From contig JAHHIE010000007.1 of NCBI GenBank assembly GCA_019358945.1, positions 62,001-126,000 on the forward strand: a DNA stretch of 64,000 nt, in the 5' to 3' direction. Within the stretch, counting starts at the first letter, position 1; each line of letters opens with the position of its first letter. A program made the translations under genes and the position numbers. The notes under the pieces are model-generated. The model searched no databases, was not told the origin of the DNA, and was given only the letters and a program-made list of their open reading frames with translations. This document shows positions 11,577 to 24,895 of the stretch, piece after piece. The DNA comes from Stenomitos rutilans HA7619-LM2 (GTDB taxonomy: Bacteria > Cyanobacteriota > Cyanobacteriia > Leptolyngbyales > Leptolyngbyaceae).

Positions 11577-13088
11577 TCACTTTTCACTGAATGTCCATAT
11601 CCCATTCCAATGATCAGGAATGCCTCGATCGCGCAAAATCTCCACTCGTTCAAGGTAGTGTTGGGCGGTTTTATCCCTAGGGTGGGCGGTAATCACGTTC
11701 TTAAAGGACTTTCTTGCGCTAGCTAAATCGCCCGTGCGGTAGTGCTCTATTCCCTGTTCAAAATCTGATTGAGTCTGAAGTTTGAGCGATCGCACGGCTT
11801 CACATTCGCCATCCAAAATTTCGTAGACCGCGATCGGTTCACTGCGGCCTTTGACGATCGCCCGGTCTAGAAAGCGAATCTGGTATTTTTCAGGGTGACT
11901 GAGATGGTCTAAGACCTGTCCAGAGATCAGCAACGATACGCCATAGAATTTCGTTAAGCCTTCCAGCCGTGCTGTGAGATTAATGGCATCGGAAAAGGCG
12001 TCGCCCTGCATTCGGTTTGCTTCGCCGACCATGCCCAGCATCATTTGGCCTAAATGAATGCCAATGCCCACTCGAATGGGTTGAGCAGCAGATGATTGCC
12101 GTGCTTCGTTGAAGCGATCGACGGCTTTAAGGGTTGCGACTCCGGCTGCCAAACCATCATCAGCACCTTCTGGAAAAACAGCCATCATGCCATCACCCAG
12201 GAATTTCACAATTAAGCCATGATGGTTACGGATTTCAGGGCTAACCTGACTGAGATAGGAATTCACAAAAGCAAAATTCTCTTTTGCCGTCATGCTTTCA
12301 GACAGGGTGGTGAAGGAGCGAATATCAGAGAACATGACACCCATGACTTTGCTGACATGATCGCCTAACTGCACATCAGTAATGCTTTTTTTGCGGAGAA
12401 AGCGGAGGTAATCGTTAGGAACAAAGCGCTCGTAAGCGGTGAGAAGCTCCTCAAGCTGTTGATTTGCCTCCAGCATTTCTTGTTCACGCGCTTTGACGGT
12501 TCTCACCATGTTGGTAAACACCCGCGCCAGTTGTCCCAACTCATCGCTGCGATCGGCCACTTCAATCAACTTATCCGGTTGAAACGCATCACGCTCTACA
12601 TCTGAGGCCGCTGTTGTCACCTTCCCCACCTGCTCAATATAGGCAGCCTGCCGTAGAATTTCTGCCTTGAAGAGGGCTTCTGCTTCTTGCCGCTTCAGGA
12701 AGTTTACATACGCTTTGGAGTGATACCGAATGCGTGCGATGAGTTCTCTGGCATCCGGTAGCTTGACCAGATAATCATTTGCGCCTAAGGCAAAGGCTTT
12801 GGCCTTAATCACCGGATCTTCTTTGCTGGATAGCACAATCAAGGGTGTGTGGCATGTGGACACATCTTGGGAACGCAAAAATTCCACCAGCAGCAATCCA
12901 TCCATCTGCGGCATGACTAAATCTTGCAGAATGACGGTAGGCTGGCAGTTTGCAGCCGCTTTCAGCGCATGAGTTGGGTCACTACAATAGTGAAAGGCAA
13001 TGTCGATTTCAGAAGACAGCATGCGCCGAATGGCTTCTGCAATGATGGATTGATCATCAATCAGTAGAACTGTAATGTGTTCGTCCAT
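11577..13088 (-). CDS. WspR-type receiver fused to class III adenylate cyclase
   Basis: 503-residue output protein of the chemosensory cluster. The N-terminal receiver (about 6-130; acidic pair IDDQ, phosphoacceptor in VILQDLVMPQMDG, then LSSKEDP and GANDYLVKLPDARELIARI) closely matches the WspR receiver as I recall it. A soluble HAMP-like linker and coiled coil follow (about 160-215). The catalytic domain (about 240-430) keeps both metal Asp (FSDIRSFT, FLGDGMMAVF), the adenine-selecting Lys (IVKFLGD) and Asp (SDAIN), and the transition-state Asn/Arg (NLTARLEG), so it should make cAMP. A TPR-like tail ends the protein. It lies 55 bp downstream of cheB and is probably co-transcribed. Confidence 0.92.
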   Translation of the reverse strand: MDEHITVLLIDDQSIIAEAIRRMLSSEIDIAFHYCSDPTHALKAAANCQPTVILQDLVMPQMDGLLLVEFLRSQDVSTCHTPLIVLSSKEDPVIKAKAFALGANDYLVKLPDARELIARIRYHSKAYVNFLKRQEAEALFKAEILRQAAYIEQVGKVTTAASDVERDAFQPDKLIEVADRSDELGQLARVFTNMVRTVKAREQEMLEANQQLEELLTAYERFVPNDYLRFLRKKSITDVQLGDHVSKVMGVMFSDIRSFTTLSESMTAKENFAFVNSYLSQVSPEIRNHHGLIVKFLGDGMMAVFPEGADDGLAAGVATLKAVDRFNEARQSSAAQPIRVGIGIHLGQMMLGMVGEANRMQGDAFSDAINLTARLEGLTKFYGVSLLISGQVLDHLSHPEKYQIRFLDRAIVKGRSEPIAVYEILDGECEAVRSLKLQTQSDFEQGIEHYRTGDLASARKSFKNVITAHPRDKTAQHYLERVEILRDRGIPDHWNGIWTFSEK

Positions 13089-13143
13089 GAAGAGTGTGGG
13101 AGCGTGGGAGTGTGGGAGTGATGGGATAGAGATGGAATAACGA

Positions 13144-14193
13144 TTAACGGGCGGGTTTGAGCGTTTGTAACAAAGCTGTGGCGATCGCCTCTGGAGGCAA
13201 TACTGCTATGGCTGCATTCAATTCCACAGCCGCTTTTGGCATACCGTAGACCACACAACTTGCTTTATCCTGAGCAATGGTGTGCCAGCCGCACGATCGT
13301 AGCGCCAACAGTCCCTCTGCGCCATCACGCCCCATTCCTGTGAGCAGCACAGCCGTGCCTCGTTGCGTGGTGCGATCGGCCAAACTTTTGAAAAGGACAT
13401 CTACTGAGGGGCGATAGGGATAGTCGATCGGGTCTCTGATATAGCCCAATGTGAGATCGGGCTTGATATACAAATGATCGTTAGTACCTGCAACCAGCAC
13501 CGTACCTGCTTCCAGAGGTTCACCCGCTTTTGCCACCCGGACAGGCAGACTAATTTGCTGGTCTAGCCAGGAAACCAGCCCTGCGGCAAACTGAACATCC
13601 ACATGCTGCACGACGACGATCGCGGCCTTGCATCCCACAGGCAATTTCGACAATACCGTTGCCAGCATTTTGGGGCCACCTGTAGAAGACCCAATGGCAA
13701 TGATGGGAGGGGTAGAGAAGCGAGGACTCGATCGCTCAAAGGCAGTTGACTTTGATGGAACAAGCGTTGATGAAATCGGTCTACTGGTTGGCGTGACGGG
13801 CCTAATTAACTTGCGAAGAGTGGCAATTTTAGCAAGGAGTGCTTTCGCGGATTGAGTGCTATCAGCCGCGTTGAGAATAGGCGTATTCACCGCATCCAGA
13901 GCACCGTGACACATGGCTTCATACACACGACTGACGTGCTTTTCGGTGCTGGATGTCACCACTAAAATACTACAGGGCGACTTTTGCATGATTTGGCGGG
14001 TAGCTTCAACCCCATCCATCACGGGCATCAACAAATCCATCAAAATCAGATCGGGTGTCTCTTGGGCGCAGCGAGTGACGGCTTCTAACCCATCTTTGGC
14101 TGTCCAGATGATGTCATAATCGGGGACTGTTTGCACTACTCGCCGTAAGGCCGCAACAGCAATGGCTAAGTCGTTGACGATCGCGATTTTCAT
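13144..14193 (-). CDS. cheB: Chemotaxis-type protein-glutamate methylesterase (WspF-like)
   Basis: 349-residue CheB that demethylates or deamidates the receptor of the cluster. The receiver domain (about 1-120) has VNDL and the phosphoacceptor region [10 protein letters not shown]. The linker is Ser/Pro-rich. The esterase domain (about 165-345) has the Ser-His-Asp triad in GSSTGGP, VVQHV and [12 protein letters not shown] at 14193 follows the cheA stop with one intervening base (TGACATG), showing tight coupling. Position after a CheA-REC hybrid matches wspF order. Confidence 0.95.
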
Positions 14194-14194
14194 G

Positions 14195-17062
14195 TCACTG
14201 CCCAATTAAATCCACGACTGCCTCAACAAACGTGTCATCTTGAAAGCTGCTTTTGGTTAGATAGTAGTCGGCTCCCGCTTCAAGTCCTTGCAGTCGGTCT
14301 TCTTCACGATCGCGGTAAGACACAATCATAATGGGCACAGACTGTAAACGCGCGTGCCCTTTCATCTGACGGATCAGTTCAATACCATTCATCTTGGGCA
14401 TATCCACATCGCTAATGACCAGATCGTAATGATTGGTGCGAGCGGCACTCCAGCCATCGGCTCCATTAACCGCAATATCAACCTTATAGCCTCGATTCTC
14501 CAGGATTCTTCGTTCCATTTCACGAATGGTAATGGAATCATCCACAACCAGAATTTTCTTGCGCTGATCCTGGTTTGGCTTCATTGGAGTGACACCAACT
14601 TTTGCCAGAGTTTTATTGCTGAGCAACGCATCCATCGATCGCACCATATCTGACACATCCACAATCAACACGGGTGTTCCATCTGCCAGCAGAGATGTCG
14701 CACTGATGTCCGGCACTTTACCCAATCGAGGATCAAGCGGTCTGACCACTAAATCGCGCTCACCCAAAAAGCGATCGACCACTAACCCGTAAGCATTGGC
14801 TTGATCACTAATGACCACGATGGATAGGGCTTCAGCCTGTACTGTTGGTTCTGGTAGCTCCAGGACTTGATAGGCCGGAATCAACCCGATCGTCTGCTGG
14901 TTCATAGTGAAATATTGACGATTTTCCACATCTGAAATCTCTGAGCGAACGATCGTCAACACATGATCAATGCGGGCTAAAGGAACAGCATATGGGTTTC
15001 CCGAAAGCTCAACGAGCAAAGTACGCACGACTGATAGGGTCAATGGTAGTTGGAAATAGAAGCTCGTTCCCTTCCCAACCTGGGAAACTGCGCGCACCGT
15101 GCCTCCCACATCTTGCGCCATACTTTTGGCAATATCCAGCCCAACCCCGCGTCCTGAGATTTCTGTAACCTGCTTCGCGGTAGAAAACCCAGGCAGAAAA
15201 ATGAACTCTAGCAGTTCAGCCTCTTTCATCTGCGCCACCATTTCTGGCGTTGCTAGCTTCTTGCTAAGCACTTTTTGACGTAGCCATTCAGGATGAATGC
15301 CGCATCCATCATCTGTGATGGTAATCGCTAACATGCCACCCCGATGAAAGGCTTCTAAGCGAATGGTGCCTTCAGCAGGCTTAGCAGCAGCAAGACGCTC
15401 TTCGGTGCTCTCAATCCCATGATCAGTGGCGTTACGCAAAATGTGGGTCAGCGGGGCCTCCAGCTTTTTGAGAATGTCTCGATCGACGGGAGTGGCTTTG
15501 CCTGAGATCTCCAACCGCACCTGCTTATTCAACTTCCGTGCCAGATCGCGAATCATGCGTGGAAAGCCCTGTACCCCATCAGCAAACGGGCGCATGTGGG
15601 ATGTGATCACTTCCCGGTAGAGCCGATCGGATAGGTTTGCCGTGCGTTGGGCATAAAGTTCTAACTCGTTCAGGCGATCGCTCAAAAAGCCAAGACACTC
15701 TTGTTCTTTTTGACGTGCCTGGTCTAAAAAGTCCCTGCTATCCTGAGAAAATGTCTCACGATCGAGGGTATCCTGCAACTGCTCCAGCGTTCGTGAGAGG
15801 TTTACCAAGCGCCACTTTAACGACATCATGGAATCGGCATGGGGTTGCAGCCAGTTCGCTTCAATCAGTGATTCACCTGCTAAACCCATAATGCGATTCA
15901 GATTTTCGGCACTGACCCGCACCACGCGATCTTGAGCAGGTACTGGTTCTGCACCAGCCTCCGATCGTTCTGATGGCAGATGATCTGCTGGAGCGATTCC
16001 ATTCTGATTAATCGATACTGTCGAGATGGATTCAGGTGCTGGTGCGATCGAGGTGGACGCTAAAGGCTGCGGAGGCGATGATACAACGGAACGTGCCGCA
16101 CCAGGGTTCAGGATGTTGGCGAGGCGTGACCGCGTGTGGCTAAACGCAGTTTCTTGATGCGCTAACCAGTGCGGGATCTCTGCATGACTTAACTGACTGA
16201 TGCCTTGCAGCAAATCCGCCCCTTGCAGCAACACATCCACACGATCGGAATTCAACACAAGCGTCTTTTGTTGAGCCGCGACAAAACAGTCTTCCATCAC
16301 GTGCGCCAGCTTCACAACAGACTCCAACGCCAAAATGCGGGCAGATCCTTTAATCGAATGGGCAGCCCGCATCAACGTTTCTAACGCCTGCACCGAATGT
16401 TCCTTGCTTTCCAGTGCCAGCAAGCCATCGTTGAGAATTGCCACTTGAGCTTCAACTTCCAGCCGGAAGAGATCCATCATGGAGTCATCCATATTAGCAT
16501 CTGCCGCGAATGTAGATGTGGAAGCGGATGCAGCATTGAGATCGGAGTTCAACACGTGATCAACCAGCAGATCATGAGCCGCTTCCTGAGTTATGGCTTC
16601 CGTTCTTCTATCTTCTCCATTGCTTTTCTCTGCTGACTGCTGACTGCTGACTGCTGACCGCTGATTCCCCAAACCTGCGATCAAACCCATCGTTTTCTGC
16701 GTTGTTGCCAAATCCCAAGCATGTTCTGTCATCCAATGATCCATCTCGGTTTCTGGTGAACGACTGAGACTGAGAAGCAAGTCCCCTGAATGGAGCAACA
16801 CATCAATATGCTCATCGTCCAATGTGATGGTTTGTTGCTCAGCAGCAGCAAAGCACTCCTTCATGTGGTGAGCAAGATGTGCCGCTGCTTCTTGCTCGAC
16901 GAGGCGAGCCGTTCCCCATAGGGAGTGAGCCGATCGCACCGCGCGATCGATTTCTGCGAGCGCAGATGGCTGCGTTTTAAGCATCGCCAAACTTTGCTTC
17001 AGGATGGCAACCTGGGTATCCACCTCACGACGAAATAAATCTAGTTTGGAGTACGCGCTCAT
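14195..17062 (-). CDS. cheA: Hybrid CheA histidine kinase with two Hpt domains and a receiver (WspE-like)
   Basis: 955-residue kinase. An N-terminal Hpt-like domain (about 1-110) has [12 protein letters not shown], in which the usual AHSIKGSAR is altered. A linker containing [11 protein letters not shown] is encoded by TGCTGAC heptamers. A second Hpt (about 195-300) has canonical [12 protein letters not shown] dimerisation region follows, then HATPase ([30 protein letters not shown]), a CheW-like domain and a C-terminal receiver ([15 protein letters not shown]). It should autophosphorylate and pass phosphate to CheB and to the REC-cyclase. ATG at 17062 is preferred; GTG at 17068 is possible. 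A hybrid CheA-REC is the WspE hallmark. Confidence 0.95.
16631..16665 (-). repeat. TGCTGAC heptamer array inside cheA
   Basis: Four perfect TGCTGAC units plus CGCTGAT (35 bp) within the cheA frame. On the coding strand they encode [11 protein letters not shown] between the two Hpt domains. The same heptamer occurs in intergenic DNA, for example around 22750-22780. Located in an interdomain linker where extra residues should be tolerated. Confidence 0.9.
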
Positions 17063-17076
17063 AGTCACTTTATTGC

Positions 17077-17799
17077 CTACAACATTTTGTGATTGAGCGT
17101 GTAGAACAGCAATTCAGAATCTAGATAGTTGACCTTTTCTCCATCCCAGTGAATGATACCCTGGGTATATGACTCAGCCGCCTTGGTAATCACAACAGGT
17201 GCCTCGTGTAGCTCATTGTGATGAAAGCGATAGGTGCCATAGACTTCATCGACTGGAAAGACCCATTTCCCTTCTGGCACTCCGGCAACCATCATGCGCT
17301 TGCTGTCGGTCTGAAGCGCTGATTCCTTTAAGCAATCCACATTAAGTAAATGGCTGAGCGAGGCACACAGCAGCGTTTCTCCCCGAATGTTGACGAGTCC
17401 TAGAAAGAGATCATTACTGCGATGGGGCAGTGGTTGAATCGCACAGGGATGGGTCACTTCTTGCAAAATTCGCACAGGCAGGGCGAGTTTCTGATTTTCC
17501 AGGCGAAAGATCATGATTGAGATGGTTTCCTCTACCGGAAGGATCATCCCATTGCTATCAGCAGCGCCTGAATTCGTGGTTTCTGCCAGAATGTGAATCC
17601 ACTCATCTACATAACCTGGTGGAGGTTCTCGCTCCAGTAGGCTATCGCCCACTGCTGCATATACTGGGCAATCGTGACAGTGAATCACAGCTTTGAGTTC
17701 ATCGCACGAGCGATTACCCATCACTCCAATTTGATTCCAACAATCATTGAGGGAAGGGGGAGGGGGTGTGGAATCTACGATCGTGGATGGATAGGGCAT
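17077..17799 (-). CDS. cheW: CheW-like adaptor with N-terminal cysteine motif (WspD-like)
   Basis: 240-residue coupling protein. The C-terminal CheW domain (about 90-235) includes MIFRLENQKLALPVRILQEV, LFLGLVNIRGETLLC and a PVDEVYGTYRF segment. The N-terminal extension has a cysteine-rich motif (C21, C33, C42, C45 in CWNQIGV, SCDEL, HCHDCPVY) that I recall from WspD-type CheW proteins and that could bind a metal or be redox-active; this is inference. It should link the receptor to CheA. The gene lies 14 bp upstream of the cheA start, and the gap to the receptor gene upstream contains heptamer repeats. Confidence 0.9.
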   Translation of the reverse strand: MPYPSTIVDSTPPPPSLNDCWNQIGVMGNRSCDELKAVIHCHDCPVYAAVGDSLLEREPPPGYVDEWIHILAETTNSGAADSNGMILPVEETISIMIFRLENQKLALPVRILQEVTHPCAIQPLPHRSNDLFLGLVNIRGETLLCASLSHLLNVDCLKESALQTDSKRMMVAGVPEGKWVFPVDEVYGTYRFHHNELHEAPVVITKAAESYTQGIIHWDGEKVNYLDSELLFYTLNHKML

Positions 17800-17932
17800 G
17801 GGGGAGGAATAAAGGATGAGGGATAAAGGATAAAAGCTGACCGCTAAACCAACTCAAAACTCAAAACTTTGACTTCTGATTTCTGACTTCTGACTTCTGA
17901 ACTCAAAACTCAAAACTCCTACCGCTGTGACT
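17800..17932. repeat. STRR-rich spacer between the receptor and cheW genes
   Basis: Tandem degenerate heptamers: AACTCAAAACTCAAAAC, TTCTGACTTCTGACTTCTGA and AACTCAAAACTCAAAACTCC blocks fill this 133-bp gap inside the chemosensory cluster. No promoter or terminator is evident. It may lower read-through or mRNA stability between the two halves of the cluster. Confidence 0.7.
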
Positions 17933-19519
17933 CTACTTCCGCGTAATAGCAGCCTGTAAGCCTCGCGCGGCATCGTCTAATTGATCCAGGGCGTTGTTAG
18001 TTTCACGCAAGGCATCGGCGGTTTGTTCAGAGGCTTGGCTGAGTTGTCCCATCGCTTCGCTGATTTGTTGTGCGCCTTCGGATTGTTCTTCAATGCTTTG
18101 CCCCACTTGTTCAAAGCGAGGCGGTAAGCTTTGCACTTTACTGATGACATCACCAATCTGGTCACTGATCTTGCTAACACGATCGACACTATCGGTCACG
18201 GATTTATTGAATTTATCCATTTCCATCACGCCAACGGTGACAGCAGACTGCATATCTTTGACAATTTGCTCAATTTCTAACGTGGCGACCGCTGTTTGGT
18301 TTGCCAAGCGTCGAATTTCACGCGCAACAACGGCAAAACCCGCCCCATATTCTCCGGCTTTTTCAGCTTCGATCGCTGCATTTAGTGACAAAATGCTGGT
18401 TTGATCGGCAACCTTTGTGATGGTGATAACCACATTATTGATATTGTTTGCTTTGCTGTTCATCACACCCAGTTTGGAGGAAATGGAGGTGGTCGCTTCA
18501 AGCAATTGCCGCATAACCCCTTCCATATCACCCAGTTCATCCTGGCTATCGTTGGCGGCGTGGGCGGTTGCCTGTGCCATGTTGGCGACCTGATCCATTG
18601 TCTGCACCAGCGTTTTGGAGGTGGCGGCAATTTGGTGCGAGGTGGCAGTGACTTCATTCGTCGAAGCCAGTTGTTCTGCGACGGTGGCTTCTAGCTCTTT
18701 CCCAGAGGCGGCAATTTGGGTTGCGGAGGTGGTAATTTGCACCACCGATTTTTGAATGCGACGGGTTAACGCCTTACTGAGAAAGCGCCCCAACCCAATC
18801 GCGGTCAGTGGCCCAATCACCATCGCTGCCAGTGCCCAAAACCACGATCGTTTCACCGCTAGATTTGCCACAGCTTCAGCGTTATTAGCAACATCCTCAT
18901 TTATTTTCAAGTCCTCTACAATTGATGTAGCGACAGCTTCAAAGTTAGTCCGACTGGTTCTAATGCGATTGCGTAGTTGATCGAGCAGCTCAAAGGCTTT
19001 GCGTACCGTGACGTATTCGGGAGTATCTGTCTTACCCTGACGCTGAAGCTCAAGTAGGCGGTCAGAGGGATGCAAGATACCAAGAGCCTCAAATTGCTGA
19101 TCTAATTGAAGAAAGGCTTCATGGTCAGTCTTTGACCGATTCCACTGGTCTAAAAGCTGCTTGTAAACGCGGTTTTCTTCAGGCGATCGGGGTGCCGTAT
19201 CGTATTGTTTGAAGCCATTATCAATCTGATTCCAGGCTGCTTTCATACGGATAATTTCAGCTTGCCGTTCTTGAGCGGTTAACCCAGAAATCATCAAGGC
19301 CCGCTCAGAGGATTCAATCTGGGTTTTCCCTTCATTGACTTTCCATAACCCCATCAAGCTTGGCAGGCTATTGTTGGCTAATACATTGATACTGTTGCTT
19401 AAGTGGAAAGTGGAGATCAACCCAACGGCGGCGACGACAAGCACCAGTCCGCCCATAAACAGAAAAGCAGACGTAATCCGTTCCTGTAGTGTTTGATTCT
19501 TAAAGATCGTGCTGACCAT
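17933..19519 (-). CDS. Methyl-accepting chemotaxis protein (WspA-like)
   Basis: 528-residue receptor. TM1 (about 17-37) and TM2 (about 227-247) flank a roughly 190-residue periplasmic region that looks like a four-helix-bundle (4HB) sensor, with SLPSLMGLWKVNEGKTQIESSERA. The cytoplasmic part is a long coiled coil whose hairpin tip reads SILSLNAAIEAEKAGEYGAGFAVVA, then REIRRLANQTAVAT and EIEQIVKDMQSAV, very close to WspA as recalled. There is no C-terminal CheR-docking pentapeptide. It is the only receptor in the window and should be methylated by the adjacent CheR. Confidence 0.93.
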   Translation of the reverse strand: MVSTIFKNQTLQERITSAFLFMGGLVLVVAAVGLISTFHLSNSINVLANNSLPSLMGLWKVNEGKTQIESSERALMISGLTAQERQAEIIRMKAAWNQIDNGFKQYDTAPRSPEENRVYKQLLDQWNRSKTDHEAFLQLDQQFEALGILHPSDRLLELQRQGKTDTPEYVTVRKAFELLDQLRNRIRTSRTNFEAVATSIVEDLKINEDVANNAEAVANLAVKRSWFWALAAMVIGPLTAIGLGRFLSKALTRRIQKSVVQITTSATQIAASGKELEATVAEQLASTNEVTATSHQIAATSKTLVQTMDQVANMAQATAHAANDSQDELGDMEGVMRQLLEATTSISSKLGVMNSKANNINNVVITITKVADQTSILSLNAAIEAEKAGEYGAGFAVVAREIRRLANQTAVATLEIEQIVKDMQSAVTVGVMEMDKFNKSVTDSVDRVSKISDQIGDVISKVQSLPPRFEQVGQSIEEQSEGAQQISEAMGQLSQASEQTADALRETNNALDQLDDAARGLQAAITRK

Positions 19520-19576
19520 AATTAGGTGCCTGGTTAGAGTTGTCCGCCTGTTTGCGGTTGTAAGAGGTGAGGAAAG

Positions 19577-20842
19577 CTATTGCAGTTTTTGCATTCGCTG
19601 TCGTAATCGTGCAGCCCCGATCGCATCTCCACGAGATTCTTTTAACAACGCGAGATGCATCAACGCTTCATCGTGCTTGGGTTGGAGGTAAAGCGCTTTT
19701 TGAAACGAGCGTTCCCCCTGCTCATAGCGGGCAGTAGCCTCATATAGAGTGCCCAACAAGGCATAGGCATCTGCATTGGTAGAATGGTGTTCTAAATAAG
19801 CTTTGCAACAATCAATCGCTGCCTCTAAATGTCCCGCATCAGCAAAAGCTTTTGCCTTCTGAAACTCGGATGGAGAAGCAGCGTTGATGGTTGATGGAAT
19901 TGACGATCGTGGTGTTGCAGTGGAAGCAATCGTTAATTGTGGGGAACGGGCGGCTGAGAAGATACCTGATTGAGAGGCTAAAAACGCTGACTGCAAAGCT
20001 GTTTCGTGTTTTGGACGTTCTAATCTTGTGGTACAGCGGCGTAGTGACACAGAATCCATCTTGCGGTAGGCAAACGTAAAGGGCTGACGCAGGTATAAGA
20101 AGCGATCGCTCGGTATCTTGCCCATTTCAGAAGCACCGACAAACAATAGTCCTTCTGGTGCTAGCAAACGATGGAGTGTATTAAGTATTTGATGGCAGGC
20201 AAGCGGTTCAATGTAAATTAGTAAGTTGCGGCAAAAAATGATGTCATATTGCAGCGAACTGTTGGCAAAGATTTCCAATAAATTGCCTTGTTGAAAATTA
20301 ACAGCATCCCGAACTTTTGAGCAAACGATATATTTACTCTCAATGGGTTGGAAATAGCGGTGCTGCTCGATCCACTCTTTGCCGCGAAAGGAATGCTTGC
20401 CATAGATGGCGTTCTGGGCTTTAGCAATCGAAATATGGCTAAGATCGATCGCATCAATATCGAACCGATTGGCGGCTAAGCCTGCTTCTAATAACGCGAT
20501 CGCAATGGAATAAGGCTCTTCCCCAGTAGCACAGGGGACACTTAGCACCTGCAAGCGGGTAGTACCTGGTTTCAGCAGCCACTCAGAACGAACAAAATCC
20601 ACCAAAAAATCAAATGGTTTGCGATCGCGAAAAAACCAGGTTTCAGGAATCACGATCTGTTCCACCAGTGCATCAAATTCTGATGGAACCGTTTGTAGAA
20701 GTGTGAGATACGCCTCCAGATCACTTGCGCCACAAGCCATTCGACGACGTTCAACGGCTCTACCAAGAGCGCGATCGCCCAAAATCTTGGCATCAACCCC
20801 AATGCATTTACTCAAGAGCGCTGTGATGGGTTCCAGAGTCAT
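19577..20842 (-). CDS. cheR: CheR methyltransferase with C-terminal TPR (WspC-like)
   Basis: 421-residue SAM-dependent receptor methyltransferase. The N-terminal helical domain is followed by the catalytic domain with ETWFFRD, the SAM loop PCATGEEPYSIAI, DIDAIDLS and IIFCRNLLIYI. A low-complexity linker leads to TPR repeats (about 325-420; KAFADAGHLEAAIDCCKAYL, YEQGERSFQKALYLQPKHDE). A CheR-TPR fusion is the WspC architecture. It begins 7 bp after the cheW stop and ends 57 bp before the receptor start. The TPR may replace the missing pentapeptide tether for receptor docking (inference). Confidence 0.95.
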   Translation of the reverse strand: MTLEPITALLSKCIGVDAKILGDRALGRAVERRRMACGASDLEAYLTLLQTVPSEFDALVEQIVIPETWFFRDRKPFDFLVDFVRSEWLLKPGTTRLQVLSVPCATGEEPYSIAIALLEAGLAANRFDIDAIDLSHISIAKAQNAIYGKHSFRGKEWIEQHRYFQPIESKYIVCSKVRDAVNFQQGNLLEIFANSSLQYDIIFCRNLLIYIEPLACHQILNTLHRLLAPEGLLFVGASEMGKIPSDRFLYLRQPFTFAYRKMDSVSLRRCTTRLERPKHETALQSAFLASQSGIFSAARSPQLTIASTATPRSSIPSTINAASPSEFQKAKAFADAGHLEAAIDCCKAYLEHHSTNADAYALLGTLYEATARYEQGERSFQKALYLQPKHDEALMHLALLKESRGDAIGAARLRQRMQKLQ

Positions 20843-20849
20843 CGGTGAG

Positions 20850-21302
20850 TCAGGCTCCTGCTGGCGTATTCAAGAACTGCACAGCCGCAAAGAGTTGCTC
20901 TAGACAAACACGTTGAATGAGTCCTTTTTTATCCGTCATGATGCCACCTAAGTAGGAGTCTTCTTGCCCTTGAATGCCTGCGTCCATGAAATCAGCCTCC
21001 GCCTTGTCCAGTGTTTCAATCACGCGTTCTGCCATTAAGCCGATATAGCGCAAAGCACCATCTGATTGGGGATAGCTCACCATCATGACGCGTGTGCTCA
21101 GGTATTTCTGGCTGGGAATCCCTCGCATCAATCGACATAAATCAATGACTGGAACGATGGAACTGCGATAATTAAAGACGCCTGCAACATACTCAGGCAC
21201 TTGATGCAATTGGCGATAAGCGAGACGTGGAATCACTTCGACGACGTGCTCACTCTCGATCGCGTACAGACTGCTGCCCACATTAAAAATTAACAGTAAC
21301 AT
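20850..21302 (-). CDS. cheW: CheW-like adaptor (WspB-like), first gene of the chemosensory cluster
   Basis: 150-residue single-domain CheW protein: LLLIFNVGSSLYAI, VVEVIPR, VPEYVAGVFNYRSSIVPVIDL and RYIGLMAERVIETL are typical. It probably bridges the receptor and CheA. I choose ATG at 21302 because GTGGAG just upstream acts as a Shine-Dalgarno; the in-frame GTG at 21314 overlaps that site. It opens the run of seven minus-strand genes ending with the cyclase. A MITE lies between it and the HD-domain gene upstream. Confidence 0.92.
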   Translation of the reverse strand: MLLLIFNVGSSLYAIESEHVVEVIPRLAYRQLHQVPEYVAGVFNYRSSIVPVIDLCRLMRGIPSQKYLSTRVMMVSYPQSDGALRYIGLMAERVIETLDKAEADFMDAGIQGQEDSYLGGIMTDKKGLIQRVCLEQLFAAVQFLNTPAGA

Positions 21303-21416
21303 CGCTAGCTCCACTCGCAGATTGAATGGAATTTAAATCAAGCACATCGCTTGATTGCCCCTAGCATTCCCGCTTATGAAAATGGGATCACGCTCTTCAC
21401 AAAAGTCCTCGTGATT

Positions 21417-21586
21417 CTAGGCTGTGTTTTAAAACTCCTAATCGCTTCGTTGCTGAAGCTTCTGCCCCCTTTTCTTGTATGCCCAAGGGGCTTTAAGCCC
21501 CCAAAGATTGGGGGACTTTGAAGCCTGTTTGGAAGCCCCCAGAATTGGGGGTGGGGGGCTTTCGAGGGTTTTAAAACACGCCCTAG
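21417..21586. mobile_element. MITE-like element with IS5-type ends
   Basis: A 162-bp element (21421-21582) with inverted ends GCTGTGTTTTAAAAC and GTTTTAAAACACGCC, flanked on both sides by CTAG (21417-21420 and 21583-21586), a target duplication typical of the IS5 family. The interior has CCCCCAAAGATTGGGGG and CCCCCAGAATTGGGGG hairpins. No ORF. The right CTAG supplies the TAG stop of the HD-domain gene. Confidence 0.8.
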
Positions 21587-22596
21587 CCGTTAACGCTGCT
21601 GGATAGTCCATTCACTGATGGGATCGCTGACTCGAAGCGAAAAAAGGCGATGAGACTCTCAAGCGTTGTGTTATCTGCGGTCGGTGTTATTGACTCAATC
21701 GTTTCAATAGTGGCTGGCGTGAGGTATGGAAAGACATCATGCCGCAAGATTGGAATGGCTGTTGTGGGAAACCCTTCTAACTCTTGGGGACAGCGCTGTA
21801 GCCGCGATCGCGCCAGATGTACCTGAAAGCGTGCTCGTCTCAATAAACGCTGTCGGATGTTTTCGTAAAGCTCAGGATCTTCGGCAGTAAAGCGTTTCAG
21901 ATTGTGCTGCTCAAGTAGCGATCGCACATCTAGATTCTCTTCCAAAAACAGCAGCGATCCTTCGCGGTTATAGGCTTCGATACCTTCCATTGCCAAGGTG
22001 CCAATGTCTGCGAGAGCGAGAATACGTGCGATGGGTGAAAGGGTAGGCTCACTCCTGGTTAAAGCGGGTTGAAAGATGGCCTGTTCAATGGGATCGTATG
22101 CACAAATAGTGGCTTCGATCGCCGTTTGAATCAAGCGAAAATCCTGATCTGTGAACGGTAAAGCGCTCTTTGGATCAAGCTTCTGGCATTGTTGATTGAA
22201 GCGTTCCATCCAGGTAAACAGTTGTGCTACTGTTGCCGTCTCGCTCACTCCCGCTTCTCGACGGCGAGGGCTATGCGATGTCGGTTGTGTCACGAAAATT
22301 TGCACCATATCGTGAGCAACGGCGCACAAGCCCAATAACGCTGCCATGCGATCGCGCTCAGCGGTGTCCCACAAATAGGGATGCACAACTTGAAAAATTT
22401 GGCTGGCTCGACGCTGCACCCCTTCAATATGTTCGCGGGTGTGATAACACAATTTCTGTTCAATCAGTTCACGATCGAAAGCTTGCAAGGCGAAGACTTT
22501 GAGCGCAACGATCGCATCCTCAAAGGTCTGCGGCATCGGTACTAGCGTTGCCTGCATCAACTGAGAAGATTGGTTTGGAGCAGGAGGTGAACTCAT
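21583..22596 (-). CDS. HD-domain phosphohydrolase-like protein
   Basis: 337-residue predicted metal-dependent hydrolase. The motif YHTREHIEGV, then HD in LCAVAHDMVQ and E in GVSETATVAQL, matches the metal-dependent HD superfamily pattern (YHxxxH...HD...E). It lacks the GYP signature, so it is not an HD-GYP c-di-GMP enzyme. There is no signal peptide or membrane segment. Substrate unknown. It lies upstream of the chemosensory cluster on the same strand, separated by a MITE, so any role in turning over that pathway's second messenger is speculation. Its stop codon lies in the MITE target duplication. Confidence 0.75.
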   Translation of the reverse strand: MSSPPAPNQSSQLMQATLVPMPQTFEDAIVALKVFALQAFDRELIEQKLCYHTREHIEGVQRRASQIFQVVHPYLWDTAERDRMAALLGLCAVAHDMVQIFVTQPTSHSPRRREAGVSETATVAQLFTWMERFNQQCQKLDPKSALPFTDQDFRLIQTAIEATICAYDPIEQAIFQPALTRSEPTLSPIARILALADIGTLAMEGIEAYNREGSLLFLEENLDVRSLLEQHNLKRFTAEDPELYENIRQRLLRRARFQVHLARSRLQRCPQELEGFPTTAIPILRHDVFPYLTPATIETIESITPTADNTTLESLIAFFRFESAIPSVNGLSSSVNG

Positions 22597-22744: not shown

Positions 22745-22812
22745 AAGGAAGCTGACTGCTGACTGCTGACCGCTGACTGCTCTTCAACTCAAAACTCAAA
22801 ACTCAAAACTCC
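22745..22812. repeat. STRR block downstream of the RCK-pore gene
   Basis: GCTGACTGCTGACTGCTGACC heptamers followed by AACTCAAAACTCAAAACTCAAAAC repeats, reaching into the last codons of the minus-strand gene at 22796. The neighbouring part of this gap (22597-22744) holds a half copy of the CATCCTACGCAAAT repeat also found near 6926, and nothing else recognisable. Confidence 0.7.
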
Positions 22813-24895
22813 CCCTCCTCCCTGACACCAAATGAGCCAGTACTTGAGCTTTCCGCAGTTGACGGGTAAGGCGTTGGGCTTGATGTTTATACAGCAGCAC
22901 GGGCAGAACGCTGGGGAGTTGGTTCATGCAATCGCGGGCTGTGGCTAGACTGCAACCAGAAATGCGAGCGATCGTCGTTGCACCATCAAAGAGCGCATCT
23001 TTCGACAGGGCTTGATCAAGACAGATCTGCCATTGGCGGGGCAGCATGTGGCCGTGCTCGATCTGCTGCAAGCTGTTGATGGTTGCCAGCACAACTAAAC
23101 GATCACCCACGTCTAGCCGGATGTCGTCAGATGGCATTAAGCGAGCAGATTCGTGCGATCGTTGATGCAAGATAGGAACTGCTCCGTAGCCGTAGGCAAT
23201 CTCAGCCAGGAGGTGTCCTTGCAAATGGTCGTTTGAGGCGATCGTGTATTCCGTGACCAGCACCGTTTGTTCGTTCAAACGAATCAAGTTAAGGACTCTT
23301 TCACCAAATGCAGCAGCCACAAACGCTTCTGCTGCCAAATCGTAGGCGCAAAGCACTTTTGCGAAGGGCAGCAAGCGATCGATACTGGCGCTAAACCGTG
23401 TATCAAACGTCCGAATGACCAGGGCACAATTAGGATTAGCCGCACGCGCCATTAAGCCAAGCTCCAGGTTTGCCATTTCGTCATCGGTCGCCAGTACCAC
23501 GCTTTTCGCCGTTGCTAGATTCACTTTTGATAGCGTACTGGTGAGTTCATTCACCACTAGTGGCATTTGAGGTAAAAAACTGGATTCGATCGCCTGATTG
23601 CTTACACCGACTAACGGGTGCTTAATCTGTTGCAGAAAGGTGGCAACCCGCCGTCCCACTCGACCCAAACCAATAAGCACCACATGATCTTGCGGTGGCA
23701 GCGACGGACGCTTTTTGGGTAACTGAAACTTTGCAGCTAAGAGCGTTTCAGTGAGCAACGCATACAGTACGGCGATCGAGGCCGTCCCTGCCATCATGTA
23801 GCTCAAGTTCATGAGCCGCATCCATAAAGGAATCGAGTCTTGCGGACTGAGGATACCAAACACTGTATCGTAGCTGCCTAGCAGCATGACCCCAGCGGTA
23901 TAAAACGCTTGCAGCCAGTTAATGCCTGGTTGCGTCAGTTTGAAAATCACCGTGCCACACACGAGTAGCGAGAGCATGACGCTACCCACAATGATGGCAA
24001 CCCGTTTCGTCTGTTGCTGTGCCGTGGACTGCCAGAATTCTCGCAGCTTTCGCCGTAAGTAAGCACCAGATAGAAGCTGCCGCCGTCCTTGCCACAGGCG
24101 ATCGAGCCATCCCCTAGAGGAAGAAGACGGCACGCTTGTTGTAGCCGCAAGCTCGGTTAGATTGCCTGTGACCTCAATGTAGGCAACTAGATCGCCTGCC
24201 CGCACCCTGGCATCTGGTTCCCACTGGTGAAATTCGGTGGGCAACGGCTGACCGCTGGGAATGTGGCTGAGCAACCGCCGCGTCGCGCTGTTCAGCTCAT
24301 GCAGCAGACGCAAATCGCGCCAGCGATGCTCGTCATCAATAGACACTTTGACCACCCGCAACAGGTGATCACCAAGATGAATAAAACCCCGAATTTCACT
24401 GGCAAGTGCCGCGATCGCAAAGGCTGATGCTGGCAACTGGGAGGCTTCAAAGGCGACAAAATTGCCCAAGCTCTGACCCAACAGCGCATTCAAATTTTGC
24501 TTGGACGATCGCACTACCAGTCGCACATCAGGGTTGAGTAACCGAATGGCAAATGCCGCCTCAATATTCACCCGCTCGTCGCTCGTCACCAGCAGCACTG
24601 CCCTGCATGCATGTACGTTGGCATTCTCTAGACAATCAGGTTGGCGACAATCACCAATCACCAGGTCATCCAGCAAATCTGGCAGCGTGGGCATTTCCCA
24701 GCTTTCAGGCTGTGGAATCGTGATAGCGCTCACTAAGACGCCAAACCCTTTAAGCACCATCGCACAATATTGCCCCAAACTGCCCAGCCCACAAACCAGG
24801 AAGCGTGATGGCATGGGGGAAGAATCTTCAGACTGGCGATCATTCTGTGCGATTGTCTGAGGAGTGTATGGTGGCTCTGGCTCTGGTGGCAGCAT
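22796..24895 (-). CDS. RCK/TrkA-N – two-TM pore – RCK/TrkA-N membrane protein
   Basis: 699-residue protein with a rare symmetric layout: N-terminal NAD-binding TrkA-N domain (about 28-230; FLVCGLGSLGQYCAMVL), two membrane helices (about 320-345 and 385-410) and a second TrkA-N domain (about 420-680; VVLIGLGRVGRRVATFL). This is the plan of a gated K+ channel or K+ uptake regulator. The loop where a channel filter (TVGYG) is expected reads AGVMLLGSYDTVFG, so K+ selectivity is doubtful. ATG at 24814 (MPSRFLVCGLG) is an alternative start. The start given includes a Pro-rich, unconserved leader. No operon partner. Confidence 0.82.
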   Translation of the reverse strand: MLPPEPEPPYTPQTIAQNDRQSEDSSPMPSRFLVCGLGSLGQYCAMVLKGFGVLVSAITIPQPESWEMPTLPDLLDDLVIGDCRQPDCLENANVHACRAVLLVTSDERVNIEAAFAIRLLNPDVRLVVRSSKQNLNALLGQSLGNFVAFEASQLPASAFAIAALASEIRGFIHLGDHLLRVVKVSIDDEHRWRDLRLLHELNSATRRLLSHIPSGQPLPTEFHQWEPDARVRAGDLVAYIEVTGNLTELAATTSVPSSSSRGWLDRLWQGRRQLLSGAYLRRKLREFWQSTAQQQTKRVAIIVGSVMLSLLVCGTVIFKLTQPGINWLQAFYTAGVMLLGSYDTVFGILSPQDSIPLWMRLMNLSYMMAGTASIAVLYALLTETLLAAKFQLPKKRPSLPPQDHVVLIGLGRVGRRVATFLQQIKHPLVGVSNQAIESSFLPQMPLVVNELTSTLSKVNLATAKSVVLATDDEMANLELGLMARAANPNCALVIRTFDTRFSASIDRLLPFAKVLCAYDLAAEAFVAAAFGERVLNLIRLNEQTVLVTEYTIASNDHLQGHLLAEIAYGYGAVPILHQRSHESARLMPSDDIRLDVGDRLVVLATINSLQQIEHGHMLPRQWQICLDQALSKDALFDGATTIARISGCSLATARDCMNQLPSVLPVLLYKHQAQRLTRQLRKAQVLAHLVSGRRGSFEF

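What the first reader, a model, noticed from the sequence alone, without database searches (positions are those of the whole stretch)
11577..21302. Wsp-like chemosensory pathway with an adenylate cyclase output instead of a diguanylate cyclase
Seven consecutive minus-strand genes reproduce the Wsp inventory: CheW (WspB), CheR-TPR (WspC), MCP with a WspA-like tip, Cys-motif CheW (WspD), CheA-REC hybrid (WspE), CheB (WspF). The seventh should be WspR (REC-GGDEF), but here a WspR-like receiver is joined to a class III cyclase with adenylate-specific Lys and Asp. The prediction is phosphorylation-controlled cAMP synthesis downstream of a surface or envelope sensor. Order differs from Pseudomonas only by the receptor position.
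Basis: partly seen in the sequence, partly recalled or inferred. Interest (0 to 1): 0.88.

Follow-up and report, generated by a model that had tools for sequence, protein, structure and literature searches.

The report
Chemosensory pathway wired to adenylate cyclase
In this cyanobacterium a bacterial sensing pathway of the kind that elsewhere switches on the biofilm messenger c-di-GMP instead ends in an enzyme predicted to make cAMP, and in several related cyanobacteria the same genes sit beside cyclic-nucleotide-binding channels and transporters, so a chain from sensor to membrane channel can now be tested.

Summary
Seven minus-strand genes (11577-21314) encode CheW, CheR-TPR, a receptor, Cys-motif CheW, CheA-REC, CheB, and a receiver joined to a class III cyclase. 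The kinase groups with WspE, apart from six other CheAs (100/100). The receiver matches WspR at 155 bits (next PDB family 66) and is the genome's only WspR-type receiver. Six catalytic residues, including ATP-selecting Lys295 and Asp363, are invariant in 23 of 23 aligned orthologues. At least 24 of 388 same-class genomes have this regulator; 20 keep it in the kinase cluster. Other clusters carry GGDEF, histidine kinase, SpoIIE phosphatase or other cyclases on the same receiver type. A 2016 genome paper already reported an adenylate cyclase in the WspR position in Phormidesmis. Added here: the WspR-type receiver, the output swaps, and a cyclic-nucleotide module. Orthologous clusters adjoin cyclic-nucleotide-binding MscS channels (7 of 23), SulP permeases (7 of 23) or an HD-like gene (5 of 23, window included) that tracks the cyclase across genomes. 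Best reading: receptor array to cAMP to cAMP-binding membrane proteins. Stimulus, activity and gating are untested; the window's own cluster has only the HD-like neighbour.

The parts
11577..13088 (-). Response regulator: WspR-type receiver (res. 1-136), helical HAMP-like/coiled-coil linker (res. ~140-240), class III nucleotidyl cyclase (res. ~249-418), C-terminal tail
   Evidence: Pfam REC 6.9e-19, Guanylate_cyc 3.3e-17, weak HAMP 6.2e-4 below its cut-off; receiver vs PDB: WspR 155.6 and 153.9 bits, next PleD 66.1; cyclase model pLDDT 91.5, best match OaPAC Z 24.0
12921..12923 (-). Codon of phospho-acceptor Asp56 of the receiver (ILQDLVMP)
   Evidence: Invariant with D11, D12, S87 and K109 in 23 of 23 aligned orthologues
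12204..12206 (-). Codon of Lys295, ATP-selecting lysine of the cyclase
   Evidence: Invariant in 23 of 23; Glu in Cya2 (alignment)
12000..12002 (-). Codon of Asp363, second ATP-selecting residue (Asp/Thr position)
   Evidence: Invariant in 23 of 23; Gly in Cya2 (alignment)
13144..14205 (-). CheB methylesterase with receiver (WspF-like)
   Evidence: Pfam CheB_methylest 9.1e-58; NCBIfam CheB 2e-135
14195..17068 (-). CheA kinase with two Hpt domains and C-terminal receiver (WspE-like)
   Evidence: Pfam; plasmid hits H1-H20 at 42-47% identity, of which the seven opened are Wsp operons by gene content (L069-L073, L170, L171); tree
17077..17799 (-). CheW with N-terminal Cys motif CWNQIGVMGNRSC..HCHDCPVY (WspD-like)
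   Evidence: Pfam CheW 4e-19; motif found in 7 of 8 alpha-/betaproteobacterial homologues by a strict pattern, which also misses a number of cyanobacterial copies that differ at single positions
17933..19519 (-). Chemoreceptor with 4HB sensor, two membrane spans (~res. 13-44, 225-247) and WspA-like tip
   Evidence: Pfam; hydropathy; tip 55-61 of 80 identical to eight WspA-like receptors, 32-40 of 77-80 to seven other receptors
19577..20842 (-). CheR methyltransferase with TPR (WspC-like)
   Evidence: Pfam CheR 7.8e-40 and TPR
20850..21314 (-). CheW (WspB-like)
   Evidence: Pfam CheW 5.2e-20
21583..22596 (-). HD-like protein, no Pfam family, directly upstream on the same strand; candidate cyclic-nucleotide phosphodiesterase or other partner of the cyclase
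   Evidence: In 17 of 24 genomes with the RR-cyclase, 3 of 364 without; next to the cluster in L075, near it in L074, L087, L096; Y-H-x3-H...HD...ALAD pattern

Best explanation
This is a Wsp-like chemosensory pathway (alternative-cellular-function type) whose WspR-type receiver carries an adenylate cyclase. A membrane receptor forms an array with CheA through two CheWs. CheR-TPR and CheB adapt it by methylation. CheA phosphorylates Asp56 of the response regulator. Phosphorylation promotes or realigns the dimer through the helical linker, the dimeric cyclase turns ATP into cAMP, and cAMP acts on cyclic-nucleotide-binding proteins. In relatives these include an MscS-type channel and a SulP permease, each with a cyclic-nucleotide-binding domain, encoded beside the cluster. 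The HD-like protein upstream may degrade cAMP or otherwise set its level. Shown by computation: gene content, family placement, intact catalytic and phospho-acceptor residues, conserved linkage, co-occurrence of partner genes. Inferred: phosphotransfer, direction of control, ATP specificity in practice, stimulus, channel gating, role of the HD-like protein.
For: Receiver is WspR-type: 155.6 bits to P. aeruginosa WspR, next family 66; 89 WspR-type receivers split from 26 others, 98* (the others were picked for low BLAST similarity); only one such receiver in the genome, 297 bits vs 60 for the next. Kinase is WspE-type: 60 Wsp-like rows split from 6 other CheAs, 100/100. Receptor tip and Cys-motif CheW match Wsp. 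Cyclase: D255, K295, D299, D363, N370, R374 invariant in 23 of 23 aligned, fold of OaPAC, CyaB, CyaC. Linkage: 23 cyclase loci in 20 genomes lie with the kinase. Output-specific neighbours: MscS-cNMP upstream in 7 of 23 clusters, SulP-cNMP in 7, HD-like in 5, any in 13 of 23, against 2 of 33 other Wsp-like clusters, both of those in genomes that have the cyclase elsewhere. Across 388 genomes: HD-like 17 of 24 vs 3 of 364; SulP-cNMP of 57% or more identity 15 of 24 vs 0 of 364. A cluster with a Cya2-like (guanylyl-type) cyclase has the same kind of channel inside the operon (L232).
Against: No assay of any member was seen. The window itself has no gene matching a cyclic-nucleotide-domain profile in 64 kb; its genome has an unlinked MscS-cNMP homologue (39% over the match) and 21 cNMP-domain matches, 18 over the cut-off. 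MscS-cNMP homologues at large are common (251 of 388 genomes at E 1e-50), and more distant SulP homologues occur in 41 further genomes, so only the close subfamilies and their linkage carry weight. Co-occurrence counts are not phylogenetically independent, and identity cut-offs favour relatives of the query genome. Four of the 24 genomes lack the linkage: G099 and G118 (cyclase elsewhere), G064 (with CheB only), G322 (contig begins inside the gene). In named records L180 (Calothrix) no chemosensory gene was found within 10 kb, and in L181 (Roseofilum) only CheB. One further orthologue, L188, has Thr at the position of Asn370. 15 of 56 kinase places have no WspR-type regulator in the stretch fetched, some at contig ends. 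The cyclase scores modestly in Pfam (63 bits).
Confidence: 0.8

Rival explanations
1. The chemosensory cluster really controls c-di-GMP through a separate diguanylate cyclase, as the 2016 Phormidesmis paper looked for, and the linked cyclase is a side branch.
For: PMC4971617 lists two GGDEF proteins modelled on WspR elsewhere in that genome; three clusters in cyanobacterial genomes do carry a REC-GGDEF (L112, L113, L125).
Against: Only one WspR-type receiver exists in this genome and it is on the cyclase; the cyclase occupies the WspR slot in 23 clusters; neighbours of several clusters bind cyclic mononucleotides by domain.
Confidence: 0.08
2. The cyclase makes cGMP or is promiscuous.
For: The best-scoring solved structures include the guanylyl cyclase Cya2; some Wsp-like clusters have a Glu/Gly cyclase (L232, L238, L250, L259), L232 close to Cya2.
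Against: Lys295 and Asp363 are invariant in 23 of 23; Cya2 has Glu and Gly there; a solved KDA-to-EGY variant of the adenylyl cyclase Ma1120 bears this kind of exchange (title; that these are the same positions is recalled).
Confidence: 0.1
3. The receiver works without phosphorylation or represses the cyclase, so that the pathway lowers cAMP when the kinase is active.
For: The sign of control cannot be read from sequence; a paper titled 'Phosphorylation-Independent Regulation of the Diguanylate Cyclase WspR' exists (PMC2270323, search listing only).
Against: All phospho-acceptor residues are invariant and the CheA has its Hpt, ATPase and CheW domains.
Confidence: 0.2
4. HD-like, MscS-cNMP and SulP-cNMP neighbours reflect shared ancestry of a gene neighbourhood, not one pathway.
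For: Counts are over related genomes; some cyclase clusters (L077-L081 except L076) have none of them in the stretch fetched.
Against: They track the cyclase and not the Wsp core: HD-like in 0 of 28 genomes with a Wsp-like CheA but without the cyclase. Receiver-less relatives of the cyclase also lie by SulP-cNMP (L130, L131) or HD-like (L132) genes.
Confidence: 0.25

Closest known systems
Wsp cassette of Phormidesmis priestleyi BC1401 (Chrismas et al. 2016, PMC4971617; passages read)
   Same: Same order wspB, C, A, D, E, F and a class 3 adenylate cyclase in the WspR position; a cyclic-nucleotide-binding gene just upstream; the Wsp system is also said to be in L. boryana PCC 6306 and Geitlerinema PCC 7407.
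   Different: In the passages read the paper does not say that the cyclase carries a WspR-type receiver, seeks the regulator among GGDEF proteins, and gives no tree of the parts, no co-occurrence data and no family for the cyclic-nucleotide-binding gene.
Proteobacterial Wsp system (WspA-F with WspR; WspH in Burkholderia)
   Same: Six core proteins, kinase class, receiver class, receptor tip, Cys-motif CheW, CheR-TPR.
   Different: Output is adenylate cyclase, not GGDEF or histidine kinase; the receptor gene is third, not first; the lineage is cyanobacterial. PMC8552884 (abstract, section 6 and passages read) states that Wsp is exclusive to beta- and gammaproteobacteria and ends only in WspR or WspH.
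cheR-TPR / ACF clusters with multidomain regulators (PMC3447774; section 9 and passages read)
   Same: The survey lists REC fused to a mononucleotidyl cyclase among outputs of cheR-TPR clusters.
   Different: No receiver class or pathway for it in the text read; supplements were not available.
Pil-Chp and CyaB of Pseudomonas aeruginosa (recalled; search listing only)
   Same: A chemosensory system that ends in cAMP.
   Different: CyaB is a membrane cyclase without a receiver, under another chemosensory class (recalled).
Bacterial cyclic-nucleotide-gated channels, MscS fused to a cNMP domain (bCNG; recalled, the paper tried is not held)
   Same: Domain make-up of the neighbour genes in relatives.
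   Different: A link to a chemosensory array was not met in any paper read here; it was not itself searched for.

Membership tests
Wsp system (sensu PMC8552884) | wspA-wspF homologues clustered, at least 30% identity | tested here: met
   vs Azoarcus L070: receptor signalling part 50, CheW 38, CheR 44, Cys-CheW 37, CheA 48, CheB 52, receiver 60%
Wsp system (sensu PMC8552884) | gene order A-B-C-D-E-F | tested here: not met
   Order here is B-C-A-D-E-F; Azoarcus and Mesorhizobium have A first
Wsp system (sensu PMC8552884) | terminal output WspR (GGDEF) or WspH (histidine kinase) | tested here: not met
   Guanylate_cyc domain instead
Wsp system (sensu PMC8552884) | WspR/H-type receiver | tested here: met
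Wsp system (sensu PMC8552884) | WspE-class kinase | tested here: met
   100/100 split from six other CheAs; the cyanobacterial set (99/94) is separate from the set with the alpha-/betaproteobacterial kinases (98/95); that the two are sisters is weakly supported (82/23)
Wsp system (sensu PMC8552884) | response to surface contact | not testable with these tools
   no experiment
ACF chemosensory class | CheR-TPR and multidomain response regulator in a che cluster | tested here: met
   features from PMC3447774
ACF chemosensory class | CheA with several Hpt and a C-terminal receiver (common in ACF and Tfp classes) | tested here: met
   two Hpt stretches and REC; statement in PMC10782961 (passages); does not separate ACF from Tfp
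ACF chemosensory class | CheA assigned ACF by the published class models | not testable with these tools
   class models not held
Class III adenylate cyclase | two metal Asp, Lys and Asp/Thr for adenine, Asn and Arg for transition state (roles recalled) | tested here: met
   D255, D299, K295, D363, N370, R374 in 23 of 23
Class III adenylate cyclase | cyclase fold | tested here: met
   model pLDDT 91.5; OaPAC Z 24.0, rmsd 2.6 over 219
Class III adenylate cyclase | ATP converted to cAMP | not testable with these tools
   no assay
HD phosphohydrolase (for 21583-22596) | H...HD...D metal site in an HD fold | tested here: inconclusive
   pattern seen in 6 of 6 complete members, but Pfam HD reached only E 0.076 in 1 of 7, and the only PDB match up to E 10 is unrelated (E 1.2)

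The most novel reading that the evidence does not exclude
A complete bacterial parallel of olfactory signalling. A chemoreceptor array drives an adenylate cyclase response regulator. The cAMP opens a cyclic-nucleotide-gated MscS-type channel and acts on a SulP permease, both encoded next to the array in relatives, and an HD-family enzyme resets it. The Wsp core is then a general front end that evolution has fitted with at least five kinds of output on one receiver type: GGDEF, histidine kinase, SpoIIE-type phosphatase, adenylate-type and guanylyl-type cyclase.
Probability: 0.4. Interest if true: 0.86.

Novelty: new variant of a known kind. Interest (0 to 1): 0.72.

Why it matters
The Wsp pathway is a model for how bacteria sense surfaces, and the one broad survey of it that I read (PMC8552884, abstract, section 6 and passages) treats c-di-GMP, or a histidine kinase in Burkholderia, as its only outputs and beta- and gammaproteobacteria as its only hosts. 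A conserved cyanobacterial branch with a cyclase on the same receiver type shows that the sensing core and the messenger can be separated, and lets the two be compared directly. If the adjoining cyclic-nucleotide-binding channel and permease are the targets, it would supply a signal and a source of cAMP for MscS channels with cyclic-nucleotide domains, and link a chemosensory array to ion or anion flux without transcription. Each step can be tested with purified proteins and gene deletions in laboratory cyanobacteria.

Tried and rejected
First structure job (whole response regulator, 23-row alignment) gave pLDDT under 50 over residues 219-307 and 347-366; I use it only for the remark that the linker is predicted helical (pLDDT about 50-77 there). 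A deeper 74-row alignment of the cyclase alone worked.

I took entry 2w01 at first for an adenylate cyclase; its title says guanylyl cyclase Cya2, so the similarity ranking alone does not decide the substrate and I rely on the two specificity residues.

The idea that the genome hides a separate WspR was tested and not supported. A recent origin of the cyanobacterial clusters from the proteobacterial ones is not supported by the tree, except perhaps for L125, whose genome is listed with 8% contamination.

Its enzyme role is a guess from a pattern.

For the final CheA tree 25 of 91 rows were dropped by hand (long branches and near copies; one of this genome's five other CheAs among them). The full 91-row tree (quick method) gives the same main split at 99*, with one planctomycete kinase (L233) on the non-Wsp side. 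In neither tree does the cyclase label form one clade: 3 changes, of which starred branches force 2, so one gain with losses or replacements, or two gains, remain open.

In one search only the 30 loci returned were checked for the receiver (24 have it, 6 do not), plus second copies in three genomes; lower-ranked matches were not, so 24 genomes is a minimum. The plasmid search stopped at 5000 records. Sums over the 56 kinase places were made by hand from the maps and the Pfam.

Of the 23 cyclase clusters, ten have none of the three partner genes in the stretch fetched, some of them at contig ends; L091 has instead a protein with two cyclic-nucleotide domains 0.9 kb beyond the regulator.

Besides those cited I read passages of PMC12288463 (no mention of Wsp or adenylate). 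A link between Wsp-like arrays and MscS-cNMP or SulP-cNMP proteins was not itself a search term, so I cannot say that it is not in print.
Full report
WHAT IS THERE. Seven consecutive minus-strand genes lie at 11577-21314. Pfam places each one: CheW, CheR with TPR, a receptor with a four-helix sensor, a second CheW, CheA with two Hpt domains and a C-terminal receiver, CheB, and a response regulator made of a receiver and a class III cyclase domain. The second CheW starts with a cysteine motif that a strict pattern also finds in 7 of 8 alpha-/betaproteobacterial homologues. The genome is a 7.28-Mb assembly in 119 contigs.

IS IT A WSP SYSTEM. The kinase was searched against 72,556 plasmids (capped at 5000 records). 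The best 20 hits have 42-47% identity. I opened seven of them: two are annotated and are Wsp operons in the order receptor, CheW, CheR, CheW, CheA, CheB, then a diguanylate cyclase (Azoarcus) or a PleD-family regulator that carries GGDEF (Mesorhizobium); the five without annotation have the same genes by BLAST, with a REC-histidine kinase in place of GGDEF in Burkholderia multivorans. In a tree of 66 kinases the 60 Wsp-like ones, proteobacterial WspE included, separate from four other CheAs of this genome, E. coli CheA and a Deferribacter CheA with support 100/100. The 43 cyanobacterial rows form their own set (99/94). A 10-row set (98/95) holds the six alpha-/betaproteobacterial kinases with GGDEF outputs, the Burkholderia one with histidine-kinase output, and L125, L248 and L254. 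That these two sets are nearest neighbours is weakly supported (82/23). The receiver matches WspR of P. aeruginosa and P. syringae at 155.6 and 153.9 bits, and the next family, PleD, at 66.1 (species recalled from the entries). It groups with 88 further WspR-type receivers apart from 26 others, 98*. It is the only WspR-type receiver in the genome, 297 bits against 60 for the next. The receptor tip has 55-61 of 80 residues identical to eight Wsp receptors of alpha- and betaproteobacteria and 32-40 of 77-80 to seven other receptors, among them four of this genome. By the strict published definition it is not a Wsp R- or H-system: the receptor gene is third and the output is neither GGDEF nor histidine kinase. 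It is a Wsp-like system.

THE CYCLASE. Six catalytic residues are invariant in 23 of 23 aligned orthologues: metal-binding D255 and D299, adenine-selecting K295 and D363, and N370 and R374. One orthologue outside that set, L188, has Thr at the place of N370. The AlphaFold model of residues 205-437 has mean pLDDT 91.5. Its best structural matches include OaPAC (Z 24.0, rmsd 2.6 over 219 residues), Cya2 (23.1), CyaB (23.0) and CyaC (22.6). Cya2 is a guanylyl cyclase and has Glu and Gly where this protein has Lys and Asp (alignment). The receiver residues needed for phosphorylation (D11, D12, D56, S87, K109) are invariant too. The roles of these residues are recalled knowledge of the families.

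DISTRIBUTION. Among 388 genomes of the same class, 51 have a kinase of this type at E up to 1e-120, in 56 places. I fetched the surroundings of the other 55; the window is the 56th. The regulator with the WspR-type receiver is a cyclase of the window's type in 23 places, a second cyclase type in 1 (L097), GGDEF in 3, histidine kinase in 11 (L106 lies divergently, L123 is a multi-domain hybrid), SpoIIE phosphatase in 2, and of no recognised output in 1 (L122); in 15 none was found in the stretch, some of which end at contig borders. The response regulator with this cyclase was confirmed in 24 of 388 genomes, 27 places; 20 genomes, 23 places, have it in the kinase cluster. One search of named genomes (best 80 kept) adds Moorena and a Nostocales record with the cluster, a Roseofilum record with CheB only and a Calothrix record with the regulator alone in the stretch held. 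Wsp-like clusters with WspR-type receivers also occur there in Planctomycetota, Elusimicrobiota, Desulfobacterota-type, Verrucomicrobiota and Lentisphaerota records. The six non-cyclase regulators of these that I scanned all have SpoIIE outputs. Cyclase outputs differ in type: L097 and L251 have a cyclase with 218-220 bits in Pfam and, read by eye, Lys and Asp; L232, L238, L250 and L259 have Glu and Gly, L258 Glu and Asp. L232 matches Cya2 at 295 bits.

A CYCLIC-NUCLEOTIDE MODULE AROUND THE CYCLASE. The 2016 paper mentions a cyclic-nucleotide-binding gene upstream of the Phormidesmis cassette, so I looked for such genes in the fetched loci. Directly upstream of the first CheW, on the same strand, 7 of the 23 cyclase clusters (L076, L082, L088, L089, L090, L095, L099) encode a 480-539 aa protein with an MscS channel and a cyclic-nucleotide-binding domain (Pfam for six of the seven; L090 by 65-97% identity to them). 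In Iningainema, whose regulator is the Cya2-like cyclase, a protein of the same make-up lies between CheA and CheB (L232). Beside 7 of the 23 lies a SulP permease with STAS and cyclic-nucleotide-binding domains (domains shown for L087; two of the seven run off the stretch held). In 5 of the 23, the window included, an HD-like gene lies upstream. At least one of the three is present in 13 of 23 cyclase clusters and in 2 of 33 other Wsp-like clusters, both of the latter in genomes that have the cyclase elsewhere. Across the 388 genomes the HD-like gene is in 17 of 24 with the cyclase, 3 of 364 without, and 0 of 28 that have the kinase but not the cyclase. Of the three exceptions, G349 has it next to a receiver-less relative of the cyclase (L132), G278 has it, broken, next to an MscS-cNMP fragment (L271), and G198 has no such neighbour (L270). 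SulP-cNMP genes of at least 57% identity are in 15 of 24 and 0 of 364, one of the 15 with stops inside and one cut by a contig end; at E 1e-100 more distant SulP homologues are in 41 further genomes. MscS-cNMP homologues at large are in 251 of 388 genomes. These genomes are related and the queries come from the same group, so the Fisher values (2e-21 and 3e-21) overstate the case; within the window's own family the HD-like figures are 12 of 14 against 0 of 28. The window's own cluster has only the HD-like neighbour; its genome has one unlinked MscS-cNMP homologue at that threshold and proteins of the CRP type (one checked).

HOW IT PROBABLY WORKS. Receptor array, CheA autophosphorylation and methylation-based adaptation follow from the families. 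CheA passes phosphate to Asp56. The linker, predicted helical, suggests that phosphorylation changes the dimer and thereby the cyclase, whose active sites lie between two subunits in this family (recalled). cAMP would then act on the cyclic-nucleotide-binding channel and permease in relatives, and on CRP-type or other receptors in this genome. The stimulus is unknown.

WHAT WAS KNOWN. Chrismas et al. 2016 (PMC4971617, passages read) reported the cassette with an adenylate cyclase in the WspR position. Garcia-Fontana et al. 2012 (PMC3447774, section 9 and passages read; authors recalled) listed REC-mononucleotidyl cyclase among outputs of cheR-TPR clusters. Kessler et al. 2021 (PMC8552884, abstract, section 6 and passages read) concluded that Wsp is exclusive to beta- and gammaproteobacteria and ends only in WspR or WspH. 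The present results disagree with that conclusion if the Wsp-like clusters here, and the alphaproteobacterial ones (L072, L073, L171), are counted as Wsp. In the passages read I did not find the receiver assignment, the output swaps on one receiver type or the cyclic-nucleotide module, but the searches listed in Tried and rejected do not prove their absence from print.

Noticed in passing
L085:11523-13692, L086:5364-7537, L094:12-2097: Three Wsp-like clusters without a WspR-type regulator in the stretch held adjoin a pair of ~350-aa membrane proteins. Their profile matches pentameric ligand-gated ion channels (GLIC, GABA-A receptors; best E 4.9e-7); Pfam Neur_chan_LBD matches 3 of the 6 at E 0.01, best 2.4e-5, under its cut-off. 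A possible channel partner in place of a regulator.
   Followed up: partly
L232:4586-11473: Iningainema tapete cluster in which a WspR-type receiver carries a cyclase close to the guanylyl cyclase Cya2, with an MscS-cNMP channel gene inside the operon.
   Followed up: partly
L225, L227, L228, L230, L241, L247, L083, L101: WspR-type receivers joined to SpoIIE-type phosphatase domains in Wsp-like clusters of cyanobacteria and several other phyla.
   Followed up: no
L072, L073, L171: Wsp operons with REC-GGDEF on alphaproteobacterial plasmids (Mesorhizobium, Novosphingobium, a Hyphomicrobiales strain), outside the host range given in PMC8552884.
   Followed up: no
L130, L131, L132: Receiver-less relatives of the cyclase adjoin SulP-cNMP (L130, L131) or HD-like (L132) genes.
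   Followed up: partly
L125 (G114 contig C98): Wsp cluster in proteobacterial order with REC-GGDEF in a genome listed with 8% contamination; transfer or foreign contig.
   Followed up: no
window 22796-24895: 699-aa protein with two TrkA-N domains and a TrkA-C domain, perhaps a K+ channel, upstream of the HD-like gene on the same strand; no similar gene was found in the fetched sister loci.
   Followed up: partly
L271:2-1691: HD-like gene broken into two frames next to an MscS-cNMP fragment in a genome without the cyclase regulator.
   Followed up: no
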